From NCBI GenBank assembly GCA_002224055.1, contig AZLU01000250.1:1-57736 (forward strand): a stretch of 57,736 bases of DNA, in the 5' to 3' direction. Of the stretch, positions 7,049 through 56,969 are shown one piece after another. Below the pieces are notes generated by a model. It made no database searches and had not been told where the DNA came from. It saw only the letters and a program-made list of their open reading frames with translations. Both the position numbers and the translations under genes were made by a program. How positions within the stretch are numbered: the first letter of the stretch is position 1; each line of letters opens with the position of its first letter. The DNA comes from Pezizomycotina sp. ARF18 (lineage: Eukaryota; Ascomycota).

Positions 7049-9258
7049 ATGGCGGAATACAAGCCTTACATACTTCGGCTTCCCTACGAAATTCTGAGCG
7101 ATATTGTCCTGCGCGTTTACAAATCCGAGGATTACTGGCTTCTGACTTCTTTATGCCTCGTATGCCGTAGCTTCAACGCCATCGTTACCCCGGAGCTATA
7201 CTCCCACGTCGGCATCTACCCTGACAAGGAAGGATACCTCAGAAAAGCGCGACAAACGTTTCCGGCCCGAGCTCTCCTTCTCACTGGCAGCCCTGCGGAG
7301 CCAACCCCTCCGAGGGGTGGGCCATCCGCAAGGAAAATTTACTGATGAGAACATTTGAAGGCAACGGCAGGTTGGTGAAACATGTACGCGTCTGGGAGGA
7401 ATATGCGCCGGCGGACATTAACGTGGATACGACTTCGTGGTGGGAAGTCCCTACAAACCTATTAGTTTCGCGACTAGTCTTCATAGCCTTCGCAAAGCCG
7501 TGTTTCCGTTCTACAGCGCCATCGCGCACTCCATTGTTATCAACATAGGGAACTATACCTCCCTGAGGGATCTCAAGATTGTGGCACCGGCACATATGTT
7601 CAACTTATGGTCCACAGACCTCAGGCTTCCGCTTGTGGATTTTAGTGTCGGGATGCGGCAGGCGGTGCTCCGGTACGACGAAGCTTACCCAGATGATCTT
7701 CAGCACGACGACATGGGAAATGGCGCAGACGACGATACTCGGAAGCAAATGAAGATCGAAGGGATCATTAACCTCTTCCTCATAATTTGTCCAAGACTGC
7801 GCGTGCTGAAGCTCAAGAGCTGCGGTCTCGATCCGAGACTGGACGACGATTTCACCACTCACAGAACTGTCCGATGCTTCTATCCCGCGCAGACGTGCCG
7901 GAATCGGAACCTGTTCCAGCTCCATCTTTGCAGGAGCTTGGTATCAACGGCCACGGCCAATTCATCCTCGCCGAAACTTCCAATGTTGCGCGCCCCTGCT
8001 ACCAAGCCAACAGAGAGTTTCGGTGTAACCAAATACGATTTTTTGTGCAGACCCTTGCCGAGCGATCCCCTAATCTGCAGTCAGTGCTCTGGAATGCAGA
8101 AAACGTGCTGCTCATGAGCGTAGTCGACGGCTCTGGAGTCCGGCCGGAAGCCGGGCTACCTAATCTCCGATCGATGCATTCCCTGAAATTACGGTGCGTT
8201 CTACCACCGCCGGAATGTACGATAAGGGCGGGAAGTCCGTCCCAGTCGCTTCTCGACTCCACAACCATGATCTGCTTGACTATATCGTCCGCAACCACCC
8301 GAAACTGGAACGTTTGCATTTGCTCGAGGATTTTTCATTCCTCCGAAAGACGATTGAAAATGATCGGAGCAGCACCCAGATAGCGCTGGGCAATCTGCGC
8401 TCCTTGAAACTCGGAATCCAGCTCCCCAATCCGTTCTATCCAGCACTAACGATCTGCAATATTTTAATCGATTCCTCTTCGGGAGTTCATTGATGCGTGG
8501 CGATGAGTTTGCCCGAGGTTTGCTGGTAAGCCTGAATTTTCTTAATCGACGCGCCGTTTTCGTAATTTCTGCCACAGGATACATGGGCTAGCTCCTGAAG
8601 CGTTTCCATGTCGACCCCCTCACCTTCCGTCCTCATTTCCTTCTTGCATCGCATTCCTCCCCGTCTTACTCTCGATCTCCTTTATCCCCACTCCCTTATT
8701 CTCTCCCCCTCTTATCTTCCCTTCCTCCTTGCTTCGGATCTGCTCCTACAATCATCGGAAATGAGTTAACGTCATATACAGAGTAAGCTCGTAGACCGCC
8801 TCCCTTGCTCGTTGGAGAGCCTGACGCTCGTCCTTCACGCCAGAGCCTTTCACATTGACGACAGCGAAATTGCGCGAATACACGAGTTTTTCCCGTGCTA
8901 CTCTTTCCACAAGCTACGGCACCTACATTCCTTGAATCTGAAAGCCTTTATGGCTGAGTGGGACGAGGACGAGGACGAACGTCCGAGCCCCCACCCCGAA
9001 CACGAAATCGTAGCCAAGCGGATAAGGAACGTCGACACGGACCAGCAGGACGCAATGAGCGTCTGGTGGCTGGTGCAAGATGATCGAAGGGAGCGGTACC
9101 ACAGGACCGTGCTCAGGGAATCCAGGGGTGTTTTGTCACCGGATGGATTTTACGAATGTGGCAATTTTCGGGATGTCAAGGGGGTAATTTTTCGGAGACC
9201 ATGTCTCGGCGAGAATGCGTGTTGGAGCACCGTGGAGAGGGATCGATCATTGTGTTGA
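7049..9258 (+). CDS. F-box protein, tandem copy 2, 3' end replaced by LTR
   Basis: The first exon is open for 98 codons and starts with a clear F-box: ILRLPYEILSDIVLRVYKS then LTSLCLVCRSFNAIVTPELY. The rest resembles copy 1 at 4431 and likely forms a leucine-rich substrate-binding part. Frame changes occur near 7330, 7450, 7860 and 8195, consistent with one-base run errors. An intron fits 8526-8781 (GTAAGC...ATACAG) and is strongly pyrimidine-rich. The last exon has an acidic DEDEDE stretch. The copia-1 insertion at 9219/9220 cuts the final codons. The uninterrupted gene would have read ...GENARA and stop at 16551-16553; now it runs into the LTR, gaining twelve LTR-coded residues and a stop at 9258. 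An SCF adaptor role is family knowledge; the target is unknown. Confidence 0.7.
8526..8781 (+). other. Intron in F-box copy 2
   Basis: Donor GTAAGC, branch-like GTTAAC near 8765, acceptor ATACAG. The interior is a long C/T-rich tract. Copy 1 has a matching acceptor at 6075. Confidence 0.6.
9215..9219. repeat. Target-site duplication of copia-1 (left), ATGCG
   Basis: ATGCG directly precedes the left LTR and is repeated at 16540-16544 directly after the right LTR. Five bases is the expected size for a copia integrase product. Confidence 0.9.
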
Positions 9259-9340
9259 TTGATGGATAAGGATGGGAGGAAAGCTCCCCTATTTATGTAC
9301 AATAAGGCATATACATGATCTATGTAATGGTGTTCCTACA
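9220..9340 (-). repeat. copia-1 LTR, left (3' LTR of the element)
   Basis: Begins TGTTGGAGCACC and ends GTTCCTACA. It matches the right LTR over its whole length, apart from one G (GTAATGG against GGTAATGG). It supplies the new stop codon for the F-box gene. Confidence 0.93.
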
Positions 9341-16417: not shown

Positions 16418-16539
16418 TGTTGGAGCACCGTGGAGAGGGATCGATCATTGTGTTGATTGATGGATAAGGATGGGAGGAAAGCTCCCCTATTTATGTACAA
16501 TAAGGCATATACATGATCTATGGTAATGGTGTTCCTACA
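16418..16539 (-). repeat. copia-1 LTR, right (5' LTR of the element)
   Basis: Begins TGTTGGAGCACC and ends GTTCCTACA, followed by the ATGCG duplication. It is unmutated relative to the left LTR except for one extra G. Confidence 0.93.
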
Positions 16540-17006: not shown

Positions 17007-20000
17007 CTAATGACTATGAGACGTCCCTGGTCTGTGGTTCCCCCCGACCCCCAAACCCATACTGGCTTTACTCCAACAACCGCCCCCTCCATGCCGGTAT
17101 ACTTTCTTCATTTCCCTCGTATCCGCACGTCCGTCCGCGTCCTGGTAGGGCCCGAAGACCCATTGCAAAATATAATTCGTCCAGTCGACCACCTTCTCAG
17201 CCAACTTGGCCCACTTCAACTCCTCCGCCGCGGCCGGATTGTGCCGGAAGCTCGCAAGCCGCTCCCCGTACACTCCTGGGACGATCCAGCACTTTACAAC
17301 CGCCCAGAGCGAGCTCGCGAAAACGGTCAGCGTATTGAGAAGAAAGCGGGCATTGACACGCCGCCGAGGCCCACGACGTAGTTCGAAACGATACTTACTG
17401 TGGCTAGTGGCGGTAGGACACGGCAGTGCCGCCAGCAGATGCGATTTAGTTCGGCCAAGCTCATCCGGTTTAGCCACGTTTCCACCACCATCATAGGGAT
17501 GAGGACTACACCGGTGAACAGGCCGTACTGATAGGCTCGGGGTCGCAGTCGTATCTGAGTACTTCTGGGACAATCTAAGTAGAGCTGAAAACTATTAATA
17601 TATCGAGTATATCAAATGAATATGGTGAGAAGTCCAAAAGTGTCAAGCGCCTTGTCCAGAGAGACAGCGAGTGAGGAGAAGAGGAGACAGGGAGGTCGGA
17701 GTTAGGGATCCAGAGATTATGTTCTTACGCTGATGCATTTCAAAGACAGTGGTGTATCTGGCGACACGGAATGTAGAACTTCACGACCTCGTCCGGGTGG
17801 TTCCTTCCTCGCGTAGTTGCATAGATGTCGTTATGAATATGTGCACGGGGCAATCGTAAATTGCGGTGAAGTGAATTTTCGGCTCCAGGCCTCCTTCGGG
17901 CGGTACCGGCGAACTCTTCGTTCCTCCACGCCTTTTCCCTCCTGGCCTCGCCTAAGACGTGCAGGTACGCGCCTCGGAGCCCGTGAAGTTGGCAGCCCAA
18001 AGTCTCCGCGGTTGGTGAGCGTAAACCATGATACAGCTCGCGACGAAACGGTCCGGCTGGCCTAAGTAGCGCCGTGGGCCCTCCGGCCGAATGAACTCAA
18101 TGCGGCGCAAGTTGTCTCCCTGCCAGTACTCGTAATTATCCGCGCTCGCCAGCTGCCCCCCTCCAAACCACTACAAAGATGTATCCTTAGGATTACTCTC
18201 GACGTATAGGTACTATTATCTTCTCCTTCCTCTTCCTTCCAGAGCATGGGGGTGTCATTTAAGAGCTTAAGACTACCAGCGCAGCGGGGTATCTACCTGT
18301 TGAACTCGCGCGCCTCGTCGTCCGTTTGGGTCCGGATCAAAAAGCAGCCCCAGGGGTATCTCGACCATGCTTGCAAGCAACGACTCCATGGGGAATTCAG
18401 CCCCGCTGATCTTGAACGTGTTTTGGTCCATGAGATTCGATAGAATCAGCATTTGTTCACTCCGTGAAGTCTGCCGGCCTGCAAGTTTGCTCCATACAGC
18501 TCGAACGCAACACGATGTCATTGGGATTCCACCCGCCTGGTTTGTGAATCATTTTCTTGGTCTGCATTAATGAAAATGCTTCTTGGAAGTTCGAGATTAG
18601 TGGATCGGCGAGTATCTTCCGGACCCTTCTCTCGATTACACGGTCTTTATGGTCTGCCGCGGAAGGCGTTTTCGATATGGTGCGTGTCCAGAAATTTCTC
18701 CAGAGTATCGTAGCCGCCCACTGCATCATTTAGGCGAGAGTTGGTCGAAAGAGAGCGTATATACCCTGGCCCTGCTCTTTCCACGTCGCGTTGAGGTCAA
18801 AGGCGCCATCTACCAGCTGCAGTTGGGCCGACCGACTCAGTGCTCCCTTTTCTAGCGTCCAGCACCTGCTGATCTACGAAGAGTACAAGATACGAACGGA
18901 AGTCTCAAGAGGATCTGACGTGCTGCGAGCGTTGTTCATAATTTTGGTATCAATAATGATGCCCCTTGAGGCCCCGGCGAAGATAGGCGCGATGTTGTTG
19001 ATCGCCTTACGCTTCAGCTCCCTCGTTTCTTTCGCGTACAACTCATCCACCGCTCCTTGCTACCCGGCCACAGGTGCGCAGGTAGGCATAACGTATCTAG
19101 CCTGAATAGCTTCGTCTTGTAAGTCGAGGAAAATCGCGTGATATCCAGCCCGATAATGTTGCCGCCTCCCCAGCTCTGCGCCAACCTCGAGACGCTTCTG
19201 AGGTGATCGTCCAGCTTCTCCAGCTGGCAACGCGGCAACGAATTTGAATACGGATTATCCATCCCGTCGGAACAACGTGCGAAAAGGCTACGTATAGTTC
19301 CTCGGCTTCCCAGCTTGAACTCACAGCGAACACATTTTCCGACCGTACTTTGCCAGCGGGATGCCTCCCTCTCCATTTATTCGCCTCATCTCCTCTGCGG
19401 GCACGGCAACAAACTCGCACTCGCACCCCTCCGTCAAGTGACGCGTCTTATATGTGTATGGATCGATATTGAAGGCAACGCACCCGCCCACTAAGCAACC
19501 CGCGTGCGTTATATCTGCCCTGTGGTATCTCCTTATCTGCGAAATATACAACACAACCGTGATCGGATACGTTACCACCATGTGCCTGATCTGCGCCGGA
19601 CACCAGGCCTTCCGCGCCAACTCTCTGCAAAGTTTCCTGGTTATGGCCAAAGATGTCGTTTCGGGACCGTCCAGGTGCCACGCTATAGGGTGGAGCTTCA
19701 CGTAGAGTCTACCGCCGCAGGCTAAGAAAATCGTTCTCGGGAGCACCCTAACCGATAGAAGCATAGTCGGCGGCGGCTCCGGGTACGCGCGGTACATCTT
19801 ATCAATCTCCGTGCACTTTTTCTCCACGTAGCGCATTCGCACTTCGAACAGTCGTTTCTGGTGATCATCGTCGGCCAAAACTCCCAAGTCTTCGTCGCTA
19901 TCCGGCTTCTCGGTAGGATATAACGGCAGGTCGGCTATCTTCTTCAGCGCTGCAGACGACACGTATCGGCGACCGTCAGCATCCTCGGTGATGAACATCT

Positions 20001-20235
20001 TTTGTCGGTTGGTCGCTGCAGCAACTCGGTCAGGAAGCCGAAGTACAGCCGCCACTGCACGAAGGCGGTAATCTCTTCGGCAGTGTGCTTGGTGTCTTTA
20101 GCTGGAAGTTGAAGCCATGCAACAAGGGAAATGGGCAAAGTGCCTGGCTCCCTGAGGATACTTGTACTCGTAGCGGTCGCTGAGGTAGGGGACTTTGTAG
20201 GCCTCAGTCCCGGCAGGGCGCGGTAAGTGGTCCAT
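17007..20235 (-). CDS. HET-domain (heterokaryon incompatibility) protein, frame-broken
   Basis: Large minus-strand gene. ATG at 20235 opens MDHLPRPAGTEAYKVPYL. The longest clean frame (19321-20055) includes MFITEDADGRRYVSSAALKK and CECEFVAVPAEEMRRI. The HET hallmark follows at about 19060-19300, split over frames: YVAFSHV, then DGMDNPYSNSLPRCQLEKL, then a DTLCLP block. HET proteins trigger cell death on contact between unlike strains. A middle region (18270-18730) is long and helix-rich. The C-terminal part (about 17240-17400) has a hydrophobic stretch, FLLNTLTVFASSLWAVVKCW, that could cross a membrane. Many one-base changes break the frame; the jump into MFITED is one A short of a run. The stop at 17007 is the end of the last frame and is less certain. 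Confidence 0.72.
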
Positions 20236-20642
20236 TCAGCAACTCGCAAAGGAGATACCAGCTTAAATCCGTTAACTGTGATATAGCCCGTTTCCCTTCT
20301 TGCTACGCGGCTTCTAAGACCGAACTGATATTAAATGAAAAGGCTACAGAGTAGAATTAATCACCAGCAAGACTATACTATAGATTCTATATGTCCTATG
20401 GTGCTCCTCAGTGATATACTGTTTTTGCTCTTGAGCTGCGGGACCCGCAGGAACTTGAGCCTCATATACGGGGCTCTGAAAACTCACTTTTCAGCCCCAT
20501 GGACCATGGCCAGGACCTGCGAGTTCTTACCCAATCGCTTTCAAGTTGCAAATGCAAAGTCAATCTACCTTTTCTCCATATTTTTTTTTTCCGCTCATAA
20601 CATTTAAACTTCCTGAGGCGATTCCCTAGCCTAGCTTTTACA
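20236..20642. other. Divergent intergenic region
   Basis: Separates the minus-strand HET gene from the plus-strand 2EXR-like gene and so should hold both promoters. A T10 tract at about 20581-20590 and a C/T-rich leader precede ATG 20643. No gene is seen. Confidence 0.45.
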
Positions 20643-21593
20643 ATGTCTGGGACGATCAAGGGCAGCGAACCTCACAAGCTCACGTCGGGGTCCAAGCCTT
20701 CTGCTGTCGTTGGTTCTACCAAAGAACTGGAGCGCGTCAATAGCCCCGCCGACCGTGAACCCCCTGAAAATAACAACCGCGAAGATGGCCTCTTTCCGTT
20801 CCTCTCGCTCCCTCCTGAACTCCGCCAGCACGTATACGCAGCACTCCTGACCATAACCTACGGGAGGCTATGCATCATCGATCGATATTACCCGAACCAG
20901 AACGAGCCACGTATACTCTCGTACTACGCCTCAATCCGTGAGGATGACCACCCCGCTCACCGGCTCTACCCATACCCGACGCTTCTAATCTGCCGCCAGA
21001 TACATGACGAGGCAATCCGTTACCTATATTCACGTAACACCTTCTCGATCGCATTTTCCGGCCATCGGTTCTTCCCGGTCATCGGTGAGAGAAACGTGAT
21101 GCTTCTCACAGATATCGTTATCGCGTGGTCTGAATCTCTGGAGTACCCAGTAACGCCGGAGAGTGAGCCTAAAGTTTACAGCCGTGCTTCGGCACGTTGA
21201 AGATGCTGAGACTGTTCGGACAGATGCCGAGCTTAAGGAGAGCTAAGATCACGTTGATACACGATCATCCGCCGCCTTTTGTATGCTGGGGCACGTCGCG
21301 GCGCAGGGGATGACTTGGGTTTATAAGAGGAAGGTGGACGATTTCGTCGTGCAGACTCTCCGAGGAGGAGGCGGGCGGATGGCGGAAAAGGAGGTACTCG
21401 TTTGCATAGGTAACTCCTCGTCTATCTGCGTTGATATCACGTTTAATAAGGTATTTTTGTCCTCTCTCAATCGCTCATCTGTACTAGTCTGCACCACCGA
21501 AATTGGGGAATGGACCTATTTGAACTAACTAACTAACCATGTTCTTCGTTGTTTTATCCAGGAGCACATATTAGATTGCGATGGAAGCTGTGA
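20643..21593 (+). CDS. 2EXR / F-box-like domain protein, two run errors
   Basis: The start ATG 20643 follows a C/T-rich leader. The N-terminus is a hydrophilic tail, then FPFLSLPPELRQHVYAALL and, about 70 residues on, LLICRQIHDEAIRYLYSRNTF. This pairing is the signature of the ascomycete 2EXR/F-box-like family, whose members often act as adaptors. The frame is open for 185 codons. Two breaks follow: CC at 21182-21183, where three are needed, and GG at 21300-21301, where three are needed. With those allowed for, the frame continues (FGTLKMLRLFGQM, MTWVYKRKVDDF) to an intron at 21410-21561 and ends at TGA 21591-21593. Probably an intact gene. Confidence 0.75.
21410..21561 (+). other. Intron of the 2EXR-like gene
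   Basis: Donor GTAACT, repeated CTAAC branch-like words at 21525-21537, acceptor TATCCAG. The splice keeps the frame through to a near stop. Confidence 0.6.
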
Positions 21594-27088: not shown

Positions 27089-27401
27089 TGCTGGCGCAGA
27101 TGTATGGTATAATATCTAATAATGTAGGATAGGATCGAACTTGTGGATTTAACTATAGAACTAACTAGACTAACTGAGGAATACACGATACTATATATAA
27201 TAAACTAATAATACTATAATCTTAATATAATATATACAGTCTGCCTCGACGGCTCGCAGAGCCTTATCGTCGTAATCTCCTTAACATCTATAGCTAAAAT
27301 CTTAATATCTCTAACTAAAGTTCCTTATTCCTTAGCTATATAAGTATTATCTCGATACCTATAGATTTATTATACCTCTTTAGTATACCTAATAGCTAGT
27401 A
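27089..27401 (-). repeat. copia-2 LTR, left (3' LTR)
   Basis: Starts TGCTGGCGCAGATG, ends AGCTAGTA (original CTAGCA). Both LTRs share the unmutated block CTGCCTCGACGGCTCGCAGA. Confidence 0.88.
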
Positions 27402-31678: not shown

Positions 31679-31992
31679 TACTAGCGCAGATATATAGTAT
31701 AATATTTAATAATATAGGATAGGATTAAACTTATAGATTTAACTATAGAACTAACTAGACTAACTAAGAGAATATACGATACTATATATAATAAACTGAT
31801 AATACTATAATCTTAATATAATATATACAGTCTGCCTCGACGGCTCGCAGAGCCTTATCGTCGTAATCTTTTTAATATCTATAGCTGAGATCTTGATATC
31901 TCCAGCTAAAGTTCCTTGTTCCTCAGCTATACAAGCATCATCTCGATGCCTATAGATTTGTCATGCCTCTTTGGCATGCCCAATAGCTAGCA
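31679..31992 (-). repeat. copia-2 LTR, right (5' LTR)
   Basis: Starts TACTAGCGCAG (from TGCTGGCGCAG by RIP), ends CTAGCA, followed by GGCTG. Its outer 120 bases kept CA/TG and look less mutated than the corresponding part of the left LTR. Confidence 0.88.
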
Positions 31993-35198: not shown

Positions 35199-36804
35199 AT
35201 GAGAACCGCCATTCTTATAATATTCAGCTGCACCTGGCGTGCCATGCCTTTTCGGTGTCGGAATCGAAAGATACGAAGTCACTAGACGTGACGAAAAGAA
35301 CCCCGTCATTTGGAAGGTTCATCAGTATAACCGCGCGGGCGCGCTCCCGGTGATTCCACACTTTAAATCCAAGCGCGGCCTGCATATCTCGCCGAATTCG
35401 CCGCACGGGAATGACGACGGCAACTTCGTAAGCGTTGTGGCGGGGGCCCTCTCGAGAAGCGCAGTCCGCACTTCGATGAAGCACAGCGGGACGGCATGAG
35501 TAGCTTTGAGGCGTCGCTCCGCGGGTGTGTGGCCACGCACCCGCCCCCAAAGAGTGCTGACAAGAGCCGTCATCCCCGAAGATCGGAGGAAGCGGATGCT
35601 CGCGATGGCATGGAGGAGAATATCCCGAACGAGGCCGATAAAGACCCCGAAATAGCGAAGCGCGATCCGCGCAACACCAACACCAAAGCTGATCGTAGCG
35701 GCTTCGCGCAATGTTTCGGCCACGTCCGTGGAGTCGTGAGCGGCTGGGAGGACGACTACTACTTCAAGCATGACGGCTTTAAACAGGACAAGAAGCCGAA
35801 GAAACAAACGTCGGACTCTGGAAAAAGATCGCATCATAAGAGGCGAGATATATTTGCCGAAAGCAAGACTACGAAGCGCAACCCGGCTCGATCGAATACG
35901 GACGGCCAACCAAGTGAATGGGCTAGGCTTTATTCTTACGTGCGCCAAACCGCGCCGCGCGTCTCTACCTGGAGAAATCACTTATTGGCGCCGGACAGCG
36001 GTCAAGATTCGAAAGATGATTCGGATAAAGACGGGAAGAGTGCTTCTGAGCACACGTCCCATCATAAGAGATCTGACGTGACTGAGGATATTGGTCTGGA
36101 GAAGCGCGAGCCGAGCTTTCCGGAAATATCGTGGGGAGGCCAACAGTGGAACGAACACGGGCCGGGTGGTATGCGCGGTATCATTGGCATTTATTGGCTG
36201 CCTGACACGGAGAGGAGCGGAAACTCAGATGGAGAAGGGTCTAACCAGCGAAAGTCTCGCGTTAAGCGATCGGGTGTTTCTCCCAAACTACGGAAGAGGA
36301 CACGTGCACCGCGTATCCCTGGCGGCTTCGAACCGCGCCTCAGAACGTGCGCATGGCTATGCCGTCTCAGCCTATGATTCACACACCAGACTCCGGGTCA
36401 TCAAAAGGCAACAAGAGCTCTCATAAGGATGACAAGAAGTCTAGGGACCACGACGGCCAAAAATCACACCACAAGGTTAAGAGAGCTTCTCTCAGCGGGA
36501 GAAGTACTTTGAAATCCCGGCCACAGCAATTTAGGATAGCTACCCACATTATGGATTGGCTCGGTCTGGGCGGGGAGCGTGACGGCGGGACCATTCTTAG
36601 GTAGGCCTTACAGCGGTCGCAAGATATAACTTTCCGTTTATCAGAAACTATGGCTTTGAAGCTGACATAAAGTTAAGCGGGTCGGGCGCAATTCCAGCCG
36701 AAAACATCAGTGGATCAATGGAACACTGGAAGCATGCGATAAGGAGGACTATTCCAAGAGATCGGGAAATTCTCAAATCCAGCGGAAAAGGAAGGCCGCA
36801 ATGA
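35199..36804 (+). CDS. Secreted Kex2-type repeat precursor (multi-peptide), frame-broken
   Basis: ATG 35199 opens MRTAILIIFSCT, and with one missing T continues LACHAFSVSESKDTK: a signal peptide. Lys-Arg pairs followed by X-Pro recur with codons at 35294, 35457, 35658, 35874 and 36102, giving units of roughly 55, 67, 72 and 76 residues that begin NP (or TP), SP, DP, NP and EP. Each unit has a variable, aromatic-rich core, a hydrophilic spacer ending in a basic site (SRHPRR, SHHKRR, SHHKR, KSRVKR, SHHKVKR) and a short, mostly acidic linker before the next KR. One frame is open from 35496 to 36377. Breaks lie near 35228, 35298, 35445, 36350 and 36605, all in or beside runs. The last part (to TGA 36802-36804) is a less regular unit with YNFPFIRNYGFEADIKLS. 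The likely path is secretion, kexin cleavage after KR, perhaps X-Pro trimming. The peptides are unknown. Confidence 0.65.
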
Positions 36805-37492
36805 AGCCACACCACTGGGCAGCCGGCGCCCGCCATCCTGTTATTGTCTTAGCTACTCTTGGCAAGCCCTCAGCCAGCTAATGACGATGGGGGTTTCTCT
36901 AAAATTGGTAGTGCATCCACTATAGCTAATACCTAAGGTAGTGATTAATAGCAAAGCCCTCCGTCTTGCCCCTTAGACAAGTTATGATGATGATTGACCG
37001 AGTAGGTAGCGACACCTTATAACCAGTTTACCCAGTTTGAAGTCTTCCCCGTTCATAATCAGCACTATTATCTAATGTGATTACTCACTTCGCATAGGAC
37101 CTCAGCTCCGACGTTTTTCTTATTGTGACAACGAAACCGCTAGCGTGACGTGCCATTGGTTCATTTTTGAAGATGACAATCCTTCATTCATGCTAGGTAA
37201 AAGATGAAATGCTCCGTAGTTACAATTTCATATCGTTACCTAGGTTGATTGAGATATCGGACCTCTCCTGTTATAGGCGCTTTATTCGCGCTTATCGCGC
37301 TAGATTTCGGTGTCGACTGGGAGGGTTTTGAATGTTTTAGAAGTGCATGGATAGGAGGTTATTTTTGGCGACAGTTATTTAATTATTTTTATCAAGTATT
37401 TTTTAGCCAACAAATTTCCTATACTTCTTTGTTTACTCTTTCCAACAAAATAACCAACACGCGATCTCCATTCAACATCATCACCATGGACC
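36805..37492. other. Intergenic; promoter side of BTB-A
   Basis: No supported gene. The last 60 bases before ATG 37493 are rich in CAACA and TTCAACATCATCACC-like leader sequence, common in fungal 5' UTRs. Confidence 0.4.
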
Positions 37493-39797
37493 ATGGCATC
37501 TGAAAGATCAGGGACGGAAGGGGTTCAGAAGGCCCTCGTCCGATCGATCGCAACGCTAACGATACTACCAAATCTCCTAGTTCTGGCGGCAAGGACGATA
37601 TGAAGAAGGATACCACCGGTAAAGATGAAATAAGGAAAAGCTTAGAGGGGAACATCCTTTGCATGAGGGTCAACAACCAGTCGACAAGAGCCCCAAAGGC
37701 AAATATGACTCCGAAAAGAAGGAAAAGCCCGACGATCACGGCGTCAACAAATCGGCTGCGTCTACCAGCGATGCACTGGAGCGAAACTGCCTGAATCAGA
37801 CGCCCCGGAGGAGGTTGAAGCGGCTAAGACACCAATCAAATATTTGGAAGTCTGCGAGAACGCGGACCTTGTCATCCAGCTTACAACGACCGACGGCCAC
37901 ATCATCCACATCAGGAAAAGTTCCAGATGCATTCGTGCATGCCCTGGACTTCAGAATGGACCTAAGGTCATTTTGCCATTCTAAGCTCATTCTATGTCGT
38001 TTTATGTCGTTTTATACCGTTAGCTGTTAAAAATTAATAAAATATTGATAAAATGCATCCACACCTGTTAAAATTAAGCGAAATAAAGCACTATACCTTA
38101 AAAAGTAATATAAACAACGTAAAATGAGACTCCGCAGCGCCGAAACACGCTAAAAAAAAACAAAATAAACTGTATACGTACGCGAATAACTTATAATTCG
38201 ATCGATTCCCACTTTTTTTTAATATTCAAACTTAACTTTTTATTTTTTTTAAGTACGATATTATAAGTACGCTTACTCACTAACTACTAACTACTAACTA
38301 CTAACTACTAACTACTAACTAATTATCATATAGGTAGGTAGGCAGGCAGGCAGGCAGGCAGGCAGGTATTATTATATAGTATTAGTTAGTTAGTTAGTTA
38401 GTTAAGTTAGTTAGTTCGCGTTATAATAAAATAGTAACAGTATATTTTTTAGCTCGTAACTAATAAAATAATAGGCGTCGTTGTCTATTATTTTATTAGT
38501 TGCGAGCTAAACTTATAAAAATTTAGAGTTATAAGGCTATATAGTTTAATTTTATATATTTTGCATTCTGAACGGGTTTTGTATTCTAAACGGTGTGCCC
38601 ATTCATGCCTGGATATAGCACGGTGGCGTTTTGGCAATTTTGCCATTTTGGGGCATATTGGGGCATATAATGGCAAAATGGGCTCGGTTATTTTTCCAGA
38701 TGCACTACCACGTCTGCAGGTTGATTCTTTCCTTAGCGTCGCCAGTCTTCGCGAAGATTGTCGATAAGGATTCGAGGCTGCCGAGCACGAAGAACAGGAA
38801 GCGATCGGATGATCTGTCTGTCGGTTCCTCGATTTATACGACGATAATCCGGAGGCGATGTTCGTTCTTTTTCTGGCTATCCATCTAAACACCGAGCTCG
38901 TCCCGCCCGGATTAGATTCCGGGAGTTGCTCTCCTTGACGAAGTTGGTAGACAAGTACGATTGCGTCAGGGCGCTCTAACCGTGGAAGGATATGTGGTTG
39001 GATCAGTGGTCGCGGGATGACCTGCCGCTTCAACAAGGGCATGAAGGCTGGCTTACTATTTGCGTGGTTTTCGGAGAAACAAGGAAATTTAAAGAGCTCA
39101 CGAAGGCTTTGATTACCGGACTCGCATCGCCGAGGGATAAGTCGAAGGACCGAAGCAAGTCTTACGTCCGTGCTGGCAGTACTATCCGCTTGAATATTGG
39201 AGATCTGCCAGACCTTGTTTGTAGTAAGTTCTCATGGCTGAATCACACGTTCAGGGGTACATATCCACTAACATGCTTCTTGAAAGCCGATATCCTTGAG
39301 CAACGCAAGGAAGGATTTTGAAGATCCAGGCTCACATTAACGAATATCTTAAGCAACTTCAAGACTCGGAGCAAGCTGCAAATCAAGCATTTAGCGAAAG
39401 CTCTCCCAGCGCACGCTATACTGCCTGATCGAAACCCAATATCTGCAACCAGACATGTAGCGCGATGCACTATGGAATGTTCATGCTGCGATGTATGAAC
39501 AAAGAGAAATTTATGTGGACGTGGCTATTACAAGATGCGCAAGAGTTAGCAAAAGCTACATGGTACATTGGTCTTCCAGGGATAGCCGAGTGGTATCGTC
39601 AAATAATGCAACAATCGGTACAGCATCACGACGTGGTGTTGCATACTTACCCCTGGCCCCCGTGCGGTTTGAAACCATACATCCTCGGAGTAATAGAGAA
39701 GCTCCAAAAGATGAGTGGCAATACCAAAGGTCTCGATCCCGAGAAGTACATGGGTTATAAGACCAAACATCCTGCGGCGTGTAGAAATTGTAAGTAG
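37493..39797 (+). CDS. BTB/POZ protein A, split by a 0.76-kb insertion
   Basis: The N-terminus is Lys-rich and disordered (KDDMKKDTTGKDE, KSPKGKYDSEKKEKPDDHG). The BTB fold starts at about 37850 (LEVCENADLVIQL, TTDGHIIHI) and is interrupted after 37931. It resumes at 38705 with HYHVCRLILSLASPVFAKIV, DSRLPSTKNRKRS, YDDNPEAMFVLFLAIH and VDKYDCVRAL. After it come EGWLTICVVFGETRKFKELT, a helical HINEYLKQLQDSEQ and a C-terminal part to 39797 (WYIGLPGIAEWYRQ). BTB domains dimerise and commonly recruit cullin-3; the C-terminal part is shared only with the other copies here. The start at 37493 is tentative (37486 is an alternative). Besides the insertion there are several one-base breaks. Confidence 0.68.
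38278..38420. repeat. ACTAACT array, GGCA microsatellite and TTAG array
   Basis: Six or seven copies of ACTAACT (from 38278), then GGTA/GGCA repeats (about 38331-38366), then TTAG repeats (about 38382-38416). The first and last arrays are roughly complementary, so the segment could fold back on itself with the GGCA tract in the loop. Confidence 0.8.
38448..38511. repeat. 27-bp inverted repeat (hairpin)
   Basis: Arms 38448-38474 and 38485-38511 are complementary at 26 of 27 bases and are separated by ten bases. The arm begins TTTAGCTCGTAACTAATAAA. It lies inside the insertion in BTB-A and may be the ends of a tiny nested element. Confidence 0.85.
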
Positions 39798-40832
39798 ACT
39801 TTACCTTCCAAGTCCAACTCTTACCGATATACTACTATAACACCAGGTCTTGAAGTATGATCTAACTCATCAAAGTATTCATCTTGCAATGCACACAGTG
39901 ATTTACCTCCACCCAAATCTACCGAAGCCGATAAGAATTAGACCGTGAGATTAATGGGGTCAAAGATTAACGATTAGATGTTGTATTTGGATCAAGTACA
40001 ACACCATATCCACGTAGGACAAAGACGTGCTATTGGACTAGGTTCTACAGGATGTATACCGCCTCTATGATCAGCATTCCTGCCAGTTTAGTTTGTCTCC
40101 ATTAAACGTAACAAAGTAGTACCTACCTACGACACTTAGGTACCTACCAATTGTCCTGTATTGTAGCAAGCCTCCTATAAACAATATTTCCTATGGGTCT
40201 TAATTGCCATTGCCCAAGAAAAAAAAATACATTTCTTGAAATTCCTTCAAGTGGACTGCAAGCTATACATACTTAAACCCCTAGTAGATCACAAGAAGCG
40301 CCCGTGTACCTGTTTGATATGGATTTTATTCACATAACTTCAGATAGGGAGGTGCATAAATCCTAGCTTATAGGAAATTGAGCTGGAGTAACCCAGTGAT
40401 GAAAAAAATTGCTTTATGTTATTAGACCAATATCATGAAAATCAACGACTTGGGAATCGTAGAAACTCGTAGACTTCGCTCGAAGGATTCCCCTCTGGTG
40501 GAGATCAGCTTGTGGCGCGTTCTAGACCTGGGTAGCAAACCGGACATTTAGCATTTCATAACCGGTTATTTCAAGATTAATTGGAACGGGCAGCTACTAC
40601 TGGAACAAAGAAGGCTGCCGCTCCGTATTTGGCAATATAGTTGTGTTGTCTGTTAGATATCGAACCCCTGATTAATCCTCGTCCAAGCTCTTCCGGCAAC
40701 GCGTGTCATATAGCTTTGCTGGATATCTCAGGAAGTGAACACACTCGTATATGTTTGGCTTAATCCTTGACGCGAGCTCTTCTAGTCGAACAGAAACGCC
40801 TTCATCTTCAAGAACATGCTGTGTTCGCGATC
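39798..40832. other. Intergenic between BTB-A and BTB-B, no gene seen
   Basis: All frames are short. Contains TACCTACC-type direct and inverted words near 40120-40150. Confidence 0.5.
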
Positions 40833-41382
40833 ATGGAAAGTCAAAACGCTGAAAGTAGTCGGTCGGGAAGACTTGGCGAAGAAACGACGGCACCAATGTT
40901 TCGGATGCCGCAGTATCATCAACAAATCGTTCGTGACCGCGCCGGAAGGCGTCTCCGACCTTTCTCTGCAGCTCATAACCGTGAACAAGAATATCGTGAA
41001 TTACCGCGTCAAGGAATCTGCCCTCACGCTCGACTCTCCTGTTTTCGCCAAGATGCTTGATCCTTTATCCCGCCTACCGAGTCTGAGGAAGCGGAAACGA
41101 GACGATGGTTCAACGACCGAATTCCTTGCCCTCCGCGATGACAATCCGGAGGCACTCCTGTTGCTGCTCAGGGTAGTCCGCCTACAGACCAATCTCATCC
41201 CGGCCAAAATTAACTTCAAGCCGCTTTTCAACCTCGCGACGCTTTGCGATAAATACGACTGTACGAAAGTCTTGTCACCATGGACTAAATCGTGGACGAA
41301 GCAATGGTCGCGCGCCGGGCATTTTGTACAAAGACGATATCCAGCAGAATATCCTCGGTGGGCAATGACAGAATTCCTCTAA
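40833..41382 (+). CDS. BTB/POZ protein B
   Basis: The best preserved BTB copy. ATG 40833 opens MESQNAESSRSGRLGEETTA; one frame change near 40900-40930 leads into the BTB domain, open to 41382: NIVNYRVKESALTLDSPVFAK, then DPLSRLPSLRKRKRDD, LRDDNPEALLLLLRVV, KPLFNLATLCDKYDCTKVLS and WTKQWSRAG. The basic RKRKR insert between SPVFAK and the DDNPEALL helix is a hallmark of this local family. Downstream frames to about 41580 (CLLEMLENLLE, YEFDTYYYGTPGF) may be the remainder of the C-terminal part. Plus strand, head-to-tail with A and C. Confidence 0.72.
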
Positions 41383-42103: not shown

Positions 42104-43419
42104 ATGAGTGTCGAATTTGGTAATTCCAGGGATGGTCTCCCGGGAGAGTCCCACGACGTTATAGATTCAGTTATCTCTCCCATAAGGCCCTCATCGTCGC
42201 TCCTCCGATCATGCGGACTTGATAATCCATTTCACAACGACCGAAGGAGATATCATTTATTTCCATGTCAACAAATATGTCGTCGCACTTTCGTCGCCGG
42301 TATTTGCAAAATTGGTAGACCCCGACTCTTGCTTGACTAGCCTGCGGCGAACGGAGGCTCAAGCCGGACGAAGGGGTGCCAAAGCGCTGTTCCTGGACGT
42401 CTACAACGACGACGCAGAAGCGCTATTGGTCCTCCTCAGAATTCTCCACTTTCAAACGGATTCGGTTCCGGCTCGTGTCGAGTTCCAGCAACTATTCCAA
42501 CTCGCCGTTGTTTGTGATAAGTCTGACTGCGCGAAGTCCATCTCGCCATTGGTCAAGCTGTGGGTTAACAAACTGCCGGACACGGTTACTCAGGTACAAT
42601 GGTTATACACATCCGTGATTTTTTTTTTTGAGTCACTGTGGGAAACAACTTCGAGGAAATTACAGAGTCCTTAGTCCTAGGCCTCAACCAGGTGCGGCAA
42701 AACAGGATGGAATTGATGGGTCGGGGGCTACTAGCAAAGAGCGAAGTCCCCGAGGAATATTGGGTGAGTGCAGCCTCAAACGGGTCTAGTAGTTTGCAAT
42801 TACGTATCAGTATACCAGATTGTCCATCGTTGTTTACGATTCTCACGACGTTAAAAATCTCATAGACGATATTATGGAACTCAGGAGCAGAATCTGAGAG
42901 AACCTCCGATTATGCGGCCGCGAGCTCTATACTAAGATATCGAAAGAGCTTGACTTGGCGCCAGGTCCGACAGCAGAGGGGTTCAGGATAGATGTACCGT
43001 GATATGCACCGGCGCTTCATAATCAGTTTTAATCCGCTATATCAGCAGCAAAAGTCTTTGGGTTACTTCAAATCGGACACTGTCGACGTGCGAATCTTCA
43101 ACCTCGTGTGGTCCCTAAAGAAGCTACACGGCGTTATACGGGAGGCTTCAGACAAGCCGAGGAAACTTTGCAAAAAAATTGCCAGAGGCGTCTTTGGGTT
43201 TTCAGTAGAACCTTTTGTGCGCAAATGACATGGGTGGGGCAGTTTGCGGAAAAAATCGATAAAATAGTTGAGGAGGTGCGCGGATTGCTGCATGAGGACT
43301 ACATACGATCACCCGACTCCGAGCCGGCGACATGGAAAGAATGTATGTATTCGTTTCCGCATTTTTTCATTGTTAGCGATGGCTCTGTAGCTGACCATCC
43401 ACCATTCAAGCTGCTTTGA
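42104..43419 (+). CDS. BTB/POZ protein C, frame-broken
   Basis: ATG 42104 opens MSVEFGNSRDGLPGESHDVI. After a break near 42210 the BTB domain runs IIHFTTTEGDIIYFHVNKYV, ALSSPVFAKLVDPDSCLTSL, VYNDDAEALLVLLRILHF and LFQLAVVCDKSDCAKSI. The basic insert here is weaker (RRTEAQAG). A splice or break near 42595-42640 leads to NNFEEITESLVLGLNQ, matching ETRKFKELTKALITGL of copy A. The C-terminal part up to 43419 includes a long helix-prone stretch (ENLRLCGRELYTKISKEL) and EEVRGLLHEDYIRSPDSE. Confidence 0.62.
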
Positions 43420-50839: not shown

Positions 50840-51332
50840 CTTTACAGTAAATCGGGTTTAAATTTGCTCAATCTTAAATTCTCGATATCAGTATCTGATT
50901 ATTGAAGGAACTATTAATACTTTCAACGTTGCTACCGCGTACCGCGAGCGATGTAGACCAGGAGCTTCAAAGGGATGGGAGGCATCAACATATCTTATAT
51001 ATACTTGGTTTTAATTGCTAGAAGCCTACTAAGTACGGTTTCAGACTTCATCCACCAGAGTATATCTTAGAGCGGAGGACGTCTTTTTTTTTTTTTTTCG
51101 CACTTGGGAATGTGCGTAATACCGGAAACTTGAGGCGTTTGAGCCAATCATCGTCGCGGTGCGGAGCCTCATACAAGTTTCATATTTTCGCACTTTGTGT
51201 TCGTAAATTTCTGATATTGAATTCATCGCAACTTGATCAGGCCCTTATTGCTGCTCAAATGGTGTGGGTTGTGACTTTATCCTTCGCGCTCTCAATCTTT
51301 TAATTATTTCGACGTCTTCACATACTTGAACC
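50840..51332. other. Divergent intergenic region P2 / BTB-D
   Basis: Lies between a minus- and a plus-strand gene, so it should hold both promoters. T15 tract at about 51085-51099. Confidence 0.4.
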
Positions 51333-52315
51333 ATGTCCAAAAGGATTGCCGACGAGATGCGAAGCCCGATGTTGCCCTTACCGGTTGCTTTCTCTCAGGA
51401 TCTTGGAGTGGCGGAGAGGCCGGCGAGAACGTTCCAGATATGTGAGCCGTCGGACCTCATCATACAGCTGAAGACCGATGGTCATATCCTCAATTACCAC
51501 GTATGTCGGTCGGTGCTGGAGATGGCATCGCCGGTGTTCGAGATGGTGGATGAGATGTCGAGGATGCCGAGCACGAAGAGGAGGAAACGGAACGATACGT
51601 TCGCTTTATACTCGACCTGCACGACGACCACCCAGAAGCCTTGCTTGTCCTGTTACGGGAGATACATTTACAAAATGTTCCATCTGATATCCAGTTTTAT
51701 CAGCTACTCTCTATTGCTTTATTGTGCGACAAATATGACTGCGTTCGCCCACTGGCGCCGTGGAAGGCGAGGTGGATGGAGCAGTGGCGCCGATACGGCT
51801 ACGAAGAGCGGCTATAAGGGCTTTCATCAGAAGCTATACCTAAAAAGACCCTGGTATGTATATCTTAAAATGCATAGCAGATGCTAACTTTTTATAGAGG
51901 ATATTGCCACCCGAAGAAAATTCGCGCTCACGGCTATACACTCCGTCGCGGCCAAGTTTCTGCGCGACATGGAACGGTTTGACCTTGACGACACTCCAAA
52001 GTCACAGAAACGATGCTCAACACGTGTTCCGCGGCGCTATACGGTACCTTCGTTCTTCGCGCTCGGATGGCGGGACTATGGGAAGTATTACGGCTGGAAA
52101 CTGGTCCTCCAAGATCAAGAATATGACGCAGTCTCCGTCGGTCTTGCGTGTTCTATTTTAGCTATATTAAACGCGTGCCGGTGCGCGGTCTCGATGGACA
52201 AAATCCTGGAGCACAGGCATCGCAACACTTCTTCCTTTTCGACTCGATGATAGATCGAGCTATCGATGAGCTAGAGATTCACGTTCCAGAATACCCATGG
52301 TTTGAATCCGGATAG
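51333..52315 (+). CDS. BTB/POZ protein D, frame-broken
   Basis: ATG 51333 opens MSKRIADEMRSPMLPLPVAF. Then TFQICEPSDLIIQLKTDGHI, NYHVCRSVLEMASPVFE, DEMSRMPSTKRRKRND and, one frame on, LDLHDDHPEALLVLLREIHL, QLLSIALLCDKYDCVRPLAP and WMEQWRRYGYEERL. After a probable splice at about 51900: RRKFALTAIHSVAAKFLRDM, GWRDYGKYYGWKL and a tail IDRAIDELEIHVPEYPWFES to TAG at 52313-52315. Same layout as BTB-A and BTB-E: BTB fold, basic insert, helical C-terminal part. Confidence 0.68.
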
Positions 52316-55239: not shown

Positions 55240-56403
55240 CGCTTTCTAACACAATAAAGCTCTACGCGGACCAATCGGCACGTAATGATCCGATCACAGC
55301 TGAGAGAGGCACCTGAAGAGATTTCGAGAGGGTCCGTGTCAAAAAATGAAACGCGTCTGTTAAACGAAATCTCGCGATTTTGACAAAACGCGCTATATCA
55401 CGTGCGTTAATATTGCCTGATATTAGTGGTAACGCTAGTCCAAGCCCGGAAGAAATCTTAGATGCAAATGTCACCGTTGCAAATAGGCCATATTATTATT
55501 TGTCTGCACGAGTACCAATCCTTGGTTATATCGAATTGTTAAGTCCGTAGTTGGATGACGATTGCCGGGGACATTTAGCTACATCAACATCATGTTTACA
55601 ATGGACCTTGTTATTCCAAGCCCTCTAATGCGCAGCCCAATCGAACGATCTCAGCTGTAAATAGTGAACTCATGTATAGAAGTCAACTTGGGTTCGAAGT
55701 ATGGCAGTCTAAGTCTCTGCTAAGAATTTTGTGGCTATGCTGCTGATTGAGCGAGCGAAACGCTTGAGCCTAATTTCTGATCTACAGCAGCAGTCTCTCG
55801 TCGAGTCCTAAGGGCTAGCTTGGAAGCCAATGTCATATTCGGTTTTATATAATTGCACTACGACGCTATATGACTAAATTTGAGACAGCTTGTTCAAAGG
55901 TGCCTCTGAGCTATTACTTATACCTTTACATGGAACCACCCGAATGTATGGTTAGAATTCATCTCGTGCATAGTGAACAAAGGGTGTTAATGGTGAATCG
56001 AGAGGTTGATATCATAACACCACGCAACGCGGAAACCGAAGCGTCTATTGAAAAACGACTGAAACCTCATATGAGGTTACAGATATGCTCATTATGCTAC
56101 TTTACAAAAAAAATATAATACGATGTAATATAGGTCTCAAGCGGATTGTTCTTAATTTAGCTTAGATTGATTGACGTTGGCTCATGTCGGACATCCACAC
56201 TTCTTAGCCTTTTTTCCTAATATTATAAATCAATCCTGATTTGGGAGCAGAAATTTCGAGTCGCTGGAGGCGATTTATTCTGTACAAGTTACTGTTTCAC
56301 CGGAGGAACTATCCAAAGCCGGAGAGCACTTGGCGAGCGGAGATGGTTCATAGCTGAGGACTACAGCTCGCCATCAATTCTTTCATCGCGGCTGTTTAAA
56401 AGT
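55240..56403. other. Divergent intergenic region BTB-E / BTB-F
   Basis: Contains the promoters of two divergently oriented BTB genes. An 82-codon plus frame at 55870 (MTKFETACSKVPLSYYLYLY) has no recognisable feature. Confidence 0.45.
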
Positions 56404-56969
56404 ATGTGGGCCAAACGCAGCAGACCTGATAGTGAGCTCGTAACCAAACAGGGCTATGTCGTCAGCTATGTCGTGTCGAGTTCCATTCTCTCGACAGCTT
56501 CCCCAGTGTTTGCGAAGATGTTGGAGCCGCACCTACCTTACGCAAATCCACACTGGCCAATTCTAGAGATCTACGACGATGACCCGGAAACGCTATTGGT
56601 TCTCTTCCGAGCAATGCACTGGACAATAACCACGTGCCCTCAGTCCTTTATGATTTTGATGATCTGTAAAGTTGCTGTTGTGGCAGATAAGTATGACTGC
56701 GTAAAATTTTCGAGCCTGGCGGAAATGCTTGTTGGAGCCGTGGAGCAAATAGCGCTGAAGCCGGAATGGAAGATTGGTTGTTCGTGTCGGCTGTATTCGG
56801 TGACGAGAGGAACTTTGAAGAATTGTCAAGGACTCTTATCGAGGAATCTTGGGCCATTCCGACTGAGGGAGACTCGTATTACCAGATCTTGACATCGGGG
56901 AGGCCCGGGCACGATGATATGAATGAGAAGAGATATTATGCATCAGTGAACACCCTTCCTTATTCCTGA
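56404..56969 (+). CDS. BTB/POZ protein F, divergent, one frame break
   Basis: ATG 56404 opens MWAKRSRPDSELVTKQGYVV. BTB elements: SSILSTASPVFAKMLEPHLP, IYDDDPETLLVLFRAMHWTI, VAVVADKYDCVKFSSLAEML. At about 56770 the frame shifts into MEDWLFVSAVFGDERNFEEL, matching EGWLTICVVFGETRKFKEL of copy A. It ends at a TGA at 56967-56969. The basic KRKR insert of the other copies is missing (PYANPHWP instead). No full C-terminal part follows in frame; some residues near 57370-57500 (NALKSAVMAITYSMARL) could be its remainder. Confidence 0.6.

What the first reader, a model, noticed from the sequence alone, without database searches (positions are those of the whole stretch)
35199..36804. Undescribed multi-peptide precursor with regular KR-X-Pro boundaries
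Signal peptide, then five Lys-Arg/X-Pro boundaries at 35294, 35457, 35658, 35874 and 36102, with each unit ending in a second basic site (SHHKR type) and a short linker. This is the layout of kexin-processed repeat proteins, but the units are unusually long (55-76 residues), their cores differ strongly in sequence while the processing sites are kept, and an X-Pro start suggests dipeptidyl-peptidase trimming. Conserved cuts with diverged cores suggest several different secreted peptides from one gene.
Basis: partly seen in the sequence, partly recalled or inferred. Interest (0 to 1): 0.85.

Follow-up and report, generated by a model that had tools for sequence, protein, structure and literature searches.

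The report
Fungal kexin-cut precursor, diverged units
A fungal gene that looks like the blueprint for one secreted protein cut into several different peptides at regularly spaced sites; such precursors are known in fungi, but here the peptides differ so much that searches for repeated peptides would probably miss it, and the sequence is too error-prone to call the gene intact.

Summary
35415-36374 (+) is the longest open frame in the window (320 codons), with Lys-Arg/X-Pro at 35457, 35658, 35874 and 36102 in frame, 67, 72 and 76 residues apart. Over the whole frame there are 10 KR against 3.1 in shuffles (p=4e-4) and 4 KR-X-Pro against 0.2 (2 of 20,000 shuffles). Weaker than stated: the fifth boundary (35294) and the signal peptide lie in other frames, and SHHKR is exact in only two units. 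Units 3 and 4 are related (core p=0.001, 12 tests); other cores are not clearly so. No relative was found, but a control protein of the window found none either. The assembly changes frame inside 7 of 25 DEAD-helicase loci, so the breaks here may be errors, though three in 1.2 kb is somewhat many (p about 0.04). Best reading: a kexin-processed multi-peptide precursor, built like a KEP, whose units are too diverged for the published repeat definition. A kexin gene could not be searched for. New variant of a known kind; moderate interest.

The parts
35199..35282 (+). ATG and hydrophobic stretch (putative start of a signal peptide), frame 0; stop at 35283
   Evidence: Three-frame translation; stops. 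Inferred, no predictor run.
35222..35350 (+). Continuation in another frame: rest of the putative signal peptide, pro-segment ending LDVTKR, first KR-TP boundary at 35294; stop at 35351
35415..36374 (+). Longest open frame of the window (320 codons), central part of the precursor
   Evidence: in 35457-36299 no stop against 4 and 21 in the other + frames
35457..35462 (+). KR boundary LEKR|SP
35463..35663 (+). Unit 2 (67 aa): SP-core-RHPRR-acidic spacer-IAKR
35658..35663 (+). KR boundary IAKR|DP
35664..35879 (+). Unit 3 (72 aa): DP-core-basic tail (with a further KR at 35823)-SHHKR-12-residue spacer ending TTKR
   Evidence: related to unit 4 (core p=0.001)
35829..35843 (+). SHHKR second site of unit 3
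35874..35879 (+). KR boundary TTKR|NP
35880..36107 (+). Unit 4 (76 aa): NP-core-D/K/S tail-SHHKR-12-residue spacer ending LEKR
36057..36071 (+). SHHKR second site of unit 4
36102..36107 (+). KR boundary LEKR|EP
36108..36299 (+). Unit 5 (64 aa): EP-core-S/G/D tail-SRVKR-10-residue spacer ending LRKR (not followed by X-Pro)
36300..36884 (+). Possible further units in shifting frames: K/D/S-rich tail and SHHKVKR (36464-36484) in the frame open 36266-36601; KR and RKR pairs and stops at 36879/36882 in the frame of the main ORF. The gene may instead end at the stop at 36375
   Evidence: inferred, low confidence

Best explanation
A fungal gene, with no second copy found, for a secreted precursor. 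Shown: a long open frame with near-regular KR-X-Pro boundaries and a second basic site 10-27 residues before each next boundary. Inferred: after entry into the secretory pathway a kexin cuts after the (L/I/T)xKR boundaries and, perhaps less efficiently, after SHHKR-type sites. A Kex1-like carboxypeptidase would remove the C-terminal basic residues, and a Ste13-like dipeptidyl aminopeptidase may remove the X-Pro pair. The products would be at least four different peptides of about 38-62 residues, each a core with aromatic residues and a polar or charged tail, plus short spacers. The units probably descend from old internal duplications (clear for units 3 and 4 only); boundaries were kept while cores diverged, so the peptides may have different targets. 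Some or all of the frame breaks would be assembly errors.
For: Longest open frame of the window. KR and KR-X-Pro enrichment over the whole frame and against the other 86 frames. P4 aliphatic at 3 of 4 X-Pro sites, the preference given in PMC8528282 section 4. The four in-frame boundaries share the codons AAG CGC NNN CCG (p=3.7e-4 from the gene's own codon pool, post hoc), and short DNA repeats mark them. Units 3 and 4 related over core (p=0.001) and the rest (p=0.004). pN (0.51-0.63) below pS (0.63-0.90) in all six unit pairs, by little in U2-U5 (0.62, 0.63), and favoured by protein-guided alignment. Codon-position GC in frame resembles that of helicase matches. Frame changes without room for an intron occur in 7 of 25 DEAD-helicase loci of the same assembly, about 1 per 1.6 kb.
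Against: Three frame changes in the 1.18 kb from 35199 to 36374 where 0.73 is expected (p=0.038), or four in 1.69 kb (p=0.022); without the two less certain helicase cases p=0.016 and 0.007. Signal peptide not in frame. No relative found. Cores other than 3/4 not clearly similar (U2/U3 p=0.037, the other four p 0.28-0.61; 12 tests, uncorrected). Identical aligned residues share codons no more than by chance (30 of 78, 28.5 expected). Codon-usage score favours the frame by only 10 bits over 272 codons and hardly separates right from wrong frames in the helicase control. The 35294 boundary uses AAA AGA. Presence of a kexin gene not tested: 11 requests unanswered.
Confidence: 0.58

Rival explanations
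1. A former precursor gene of the same kind, now a pseudogene: the frame breaks are real mutations and nothing is made.
For: All three required breaks fall in the first 260 bases, more than the assembly rate predicts (p=0.038). The window holds an AT-rich repeat-bounded stretch. No relatives or paralogues found.
Against: 960 bases without a stop that keep four boundaries. DEAD-helicase domains in this assembly carry the same kind of breaks (7 of 25 loci).
Confidence: 0.22
2. A protein rich in Lys, Arg, Ser and Asp that is not secreted and not kexin-processed; the KR-X-Pro pattern is incidental.
For: No in-frame signal peptide; 19% K+R; a single-sequence model has mean pLDDT 48.7, as a disordered protein would give, though this says little without relatives.
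Against: KR and KR-X-Pro above composition, near-even spacing, second sites with spacers, related units 3 and 4.
Confidence: 0.13
3. Precursor of a dikaritin-type cyclic peptide (ustiloxin, phomopsin class).
For: Signal peptide and units between KR sites are the architecture of those precursors (PMC9769878, passages); this genome has UstYa-family matches.
Against: The 4 UstYa matches lie on contigs C87 and C96, none on this contig. Units are 64-76 aa with different cores, whereas dikaritin cores are highly repeated.
Confidence: 0.03
4. Alpha-type pheromone precursor.
For: KR followed by X-Pro is an STE13 signature of ascomycete alpha pheromones (PMC6339444 sections 3, 9).
Against: Those peptides are 9-24 aa and nearly identical motifs, with some variation (same paper, section 3); here cores are long and different.
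Confidence: 0.02

Closest known systems
KEX2-processed repeat proteins, KEPs (PMC6339444 sections 3, 4 part 1, 9, 24; PMC7329392 sections 6 part 1 and 13)
   Same: Several units between KR sites, X-Pro after the cut as an STE13 signature, unit length under 100 aa.
   Different: KEPs are defined by identical or nearly identical repeats; here units 3-5 are 14-18% identical to unit 2. Signal peptide not in frame.
Ece1, the candidalysin precursor of Candida albicans (PMC5784256, passages)
   Same: One secreted precursor (271 aa, seven KR motifs) cut by Kex2 and trimmed by Kex1 into several peptide fragments.
   Different: No sequence comparison made. The X-Pro start and the second site with spacer are features of this gene that the passages read do not mention for Ece1.
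Kex2-site genes without repeated motifs in lichen RiPP clusters (PMC12048977, passages)
   Same: Putative signal peptides and Kex2 sites without conserved repeats, in lichen-forming fungi, the group nearest to this genome.
   Different: Those lie beside UstY-homologue (DUF3328) genes; this locus does not. No sequences compared.
Rep1 repellent precursor of Ustilago maydis (PMC6339444 section 3; PMC8528282 passage)
   Same: Kexin releases long peptides (37 aa) from one precursor.
   Different: Rep1 peptides form amyloid-like fibrils on hyphae; not tested here and not compared by sequence.
Kex2-processed pro-domain (K2PP) effectors (PMC8528282 section 4 and passages)
   Same: Aliphatic P4 before the cut.
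   Different: One pro-domain and one mature protein; here ten KR pairs in 295 residues.

Membership tests
KEP (KEX2-processed repeat protein) | N-terminal signal peptide | tested here: inconclusive
   Hydrophobic start at 35199, split over two frames; no predictor available
KEP (KEX2-processed repeat protein) | At least three units of 8-100 aa between dibasic sites | tested here: met
   Four in-frame units of 64-76 aa
KEP (KEX2-processed repeat protein) | Units repeated with high similarity (score above 0.6 in PMC7329392; motif match in PMC6339444) | tested here: not met
   14-18% identity to unit 2; only units 3/4 clearly related. The published pipelines themselves were not run
KEP (KEX2-processed repeat protein) | STE13 signature, X-Ala or X-Pro after the cut (optional) | tested here: met
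   X-Pro after 4 of the 10 KR pairs in frame and after the one at 35294; a single X-Pro, not a run of dipeptides
KEP (KEX2-processed repeat protein) | Cleavage by Kex2 | not testable with these tools
   Needs expression; the search for a kexin gene (PF01483) did not complete
Dikaritin RiPP precursor | DUF3328/UstYa gene nearby | tested here: not met
   4 matches found, on C87 (3) and C96 (1), none on C250; frame-broken genes could be missed
Dikaritin RiPP precursor | Highly repeated core | tested here: not met
Alpha-type pheromone precursor | Near-identical peptides of 9-24 residues | tested here: not met
K2PP effector | One pro-domain and one mature protein | tested here: not met
   Ten KR pairs in 295 residues

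The most novel reading that the evidence does not exclude
A fungal 'peptide cassette' gene: cut sites, X-Pro starts and spacers are held constant while each core evolves into a different secreted peptide, so one transcript delivers a mixture of unrelated ligands or antimicrobial peptides. Because detection of KEPs relies on repeat similarity, a class of such diverged-core precursors would be missing from current catalogues.
Probability: 0.3. Interest if true: 0.7.

Novelty: new variant of a known kind. Interest (0 to 1): 0.45.

Why it matters
The published surveys find fungal peptide precursors by looking for repeated peptides. If genes like this are functional, precursors that release several different peptides have been overlooked, and searches by boundary (regular KR-X-Pro with an aliphatic residue before it) would find them. 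It would also ask why a fungus packs unrelated peptides into one transcript.

Tried and rejected
Homology: the protein database search of 35460-36290 gave 190 word-sharing candidates, none at E<=1. Control: the window's own frame 19324-20025 (-) also found none at E<=0.001 (545 candidates). A DBP4-type helicase of the same genome found 7,994 of 7,994 scored; the top-scoring ones are 76-79% identical and many are named as lichen fungi such as Xanthoria and Blastenia (Teloschistales), with local identities up to 87% over 77% of the query among the 120 listed. Candidates there were limited to 231-735 aa, so the placement is rough. Absence of homologues therefore says little.

Paralogues: protein searches of the own genome found only the locus itself and one weak hit, E=0.82, beside frames that I recall as NOT2-like.

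Whole-unit comparisons with a unit 1 and a unit 6 that I had joined across frames gave p 0.008-0.02 for U4/U6, U3/U6 and U1/U5, but core-only values of 0.16, 0.33 and 0.43; not used as evidence.

Amphipathic helices: maximal hydrophobic moments of units 2-5 were not above shuffles (p 0.10-0.53). The single-sequence model put weak helices in cores 2-4 but no residue reaches pLDDT 70, so no fold search was made.

DBP4 as a frameshift example: its C-terminal part lies in another frame, but the gap of 56-95 bases leaves room for a small intron, so I do not count it.

Intron explanation for the 5' frame changes: no canonical donor with a fitting acceptor was seen by eye between 35340 and 35460; not modelled.

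Families: no Pfam or NCBIfam match for the 320-aa frame; a weak RAP1 match (E 0.27, below cut-off) for 36302-36601. Antisense frames (219 and 179 aa): a STIMATE match at E 0.082, below cut-off, and none. Pfam scan of 74 of the 87 frames of at least 100 aa (13 overlapping ones left out): DUF7730, copia-type gag, F-box-like, 2EXR, TrcR. Rfam: no match in the window. PDB sequences and plasmid records: none.

Literature: eight searches. SHHKR as letters gave two unrelated cancer papers.

Script problem: the first codon table read minus-strand loci the wrong way round; redone.

Full report
What was checked. The window is contig C250 of a 46.4-Mb, 408-contig genome. By its DBP4 helicase it is a filamentous ascomycete: the top-scoring relatives are 76-79% identical and many are named as lichen fungi such as Xanthoria and Blastenia (Lecanoromycetes, Teloschistales), with Histoplasma close behind (76%). 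That search only considered proteins of 231-735 aa, so the placement is rough.

The frame. 35415-36374 (+) is the longest open frame of the window at 320 codons; the next is 258. In 35457-36299 it has no stop where the other + frames have 4 and 21, and its codon-position GC (0.569, 0.495, 0.601) resembles that of 22 helicase matches of the same genome, extended by up to 150 bases of open frame on each side (0.561, 0.454, 0.596). The synonymous-codon score favours the frame by 10 bits over 272 codons, but in the helicase control it hardly separates right from wrong frames, so I rest on the open frame and not on codon bias.

The boundaries. KR-X-Pro occurs at 35457 (LEKR|SP), 35658 (IAKR|DP), 35874 (TTKR|NP) and 36102 (LEKR|EP) in frame, and at 35294 (VTKR|TP) in another frame. 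Over the whole 320-aa frame there are 10 KR against 3.09 in 20,000 shuffles (p=4e-4) and 4 KR-X-Pro against 0.21, reached in 2 of 20,000. A first test on 35457-36299, with ends at KR sites, gave 9 against 2.58 and 0 of 20,000. The other 86 frames of at least 100 aa hold 1 KR-X-Pro in 11,698 residues. The four in-frame boundaries share the codons AAG CGC NNN CCG; drawing codons from the gene's own pool gives this with p=3.7e-4. That test is post hoc, and the 35294 site does not follow it. Three of the four have an aliphatic P4 residue, the Kex2 preference described in PMC8528282 section 4 (binomial p=0.0026), but so do two of the six other KR sites (Fisher p=0.26).

The units. Lengths are 67, 72, 76 and 64 aa; the last ends at LRKR, which is not followed by X-Pro. 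Each has X-Pro, a core with aromatic residues, a polar or charged tail, a second basic site and a spacer of 27, 12, 12 and 10 residues including the closing KR. The second sites are RHPRR, SHHKR, SHHKR and SRVKR; 'SHHKR type' is exact in two of four, with SHHKVKR at 36464 in another frame. Unit 3 has a further KR at 35823. Units 3 and 4 are related (core p=0.001; rest p=0.004); U2/U3 cores p=0.037 and the rest of U4/U5 p=0.024; the other eight of twelve comparisons have p of 0.28 or more, uncorrected. Silent sites are near saturation (pS 0.63-0.90), so the duplications, if that is what they are, are old. Aligned identical residues share codons as often as chance gives (30 of 78, 28.5 expected), which limits the argument from boundary codons.

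Intactness. Read from 35199 without introns, the gene needs three frame changes before 35457: frame 0 has stops from 35283 to 35412, the frame of 35294 stops at 35351, and the frame between them must be left before 35497. A fourth is needed only if it goes on past 36375. The same assembly has frame changes without room for an intron in 7 of 25 DEAD-helicase loci, 11.3 kb in all (coordinates from the 38 matches); two of the seven (C213, C33) are overlapping matches and less certain. At that rate, three in 1.18 kb has p=0.038 and four in 1.69 kb p=0.022; counting only five sure cases, p=0.016 and 0.007. Errors can explain some breaks; decay of the gene is not excluded.

Relatives. None by protein database, Pfam, NCBIfam, PDB sequences, plasmid records or own genome (word-based searches that can miss diverged copies). 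The control shows that this says little about the wider fungal tree.

How it most likely works (inferred). Secretory entry, kexin cutting after the (L/I/T)xKR boundaries, carboxypeptidase and possibly X-Pro trimming, release of several different peptides of about 38-62 residues and short spacers. The pathway is that of KEPs and Ece1 (PMC6339444, PMC9769878 and PMC5784256, the parts read). What the peptides do is open. Amphipathic helices were tested for and not supported. I lean towards several different extracellular peptides, with low confidence.

Membership. It works like a KEP but fails the repeat-similarity feature by which KEPs are defined, and the signal peptide is unproven; I therefore call it a variant and not a member. 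It is not a dikaritin precursor by neighbourhood, nor an alpha-pheromone precursor by peptide length and identity. Genes with putative signal peptides and Kex2 sites but no repeated motifs have been noted in lichen RiPP clusters (PMC12048977, passages), beside UstY homologues that this contig was not found to have.

In print: the searches listed no paper that I recognised, by title, abstract start or the parts read, as describing a diverged-core, double-site KR-X-Pro precursor; only open-licence papers are covered, and supplementary tables of KEPs were not searched.

Noticed in passing
window 27091-27399 and 31681-31990: Direct repeats of about 300 bases (89-90% identical) bound a stretch with GC 0.29-0.32. 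In the 88 bases shown the differences are mostly C/T and G/A, as in an LTR element hit by RIP (my reading). The scan also found one copia-type gag frame in the window, place not given.
   Followed up: no
window 9220-9324 and 16418-16522: A 105-base exact direct repeat 7.2 kb apart.
   Followed up: no
window 37709-37981, 40786-41379, 42186-42671, 51330-51884, 56221-56889: Frames that look by eye like related BTB/POZ proteins, broken in frame. Only 42186 has a Pfam BTB match, E 0.075, below cut-off; 40786, 51330 and 56221 have none at E<=0.01. A 49-base repeat, 80% identical, links 38755 and 51541.
   Followed up: partly
G000 contig C87:88916-94127 (L034, L036, L037): Three UstYa-family matches within 5.3 kb, which suggests a RiPP-type cluster elsewhere in this genome.
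   Followed up: no
G000 contigs C10, C33, C44, C61, C120, C213, C356: Frame changes inside DEAD-helicase domains: the assembly seems to have many indel errors, which matters for any finding of broken genes in it.
   Followed up: yes
window 20601-21197: DUF7730 protein (E 3.4e-9, above cut-off).
   Followed up: no
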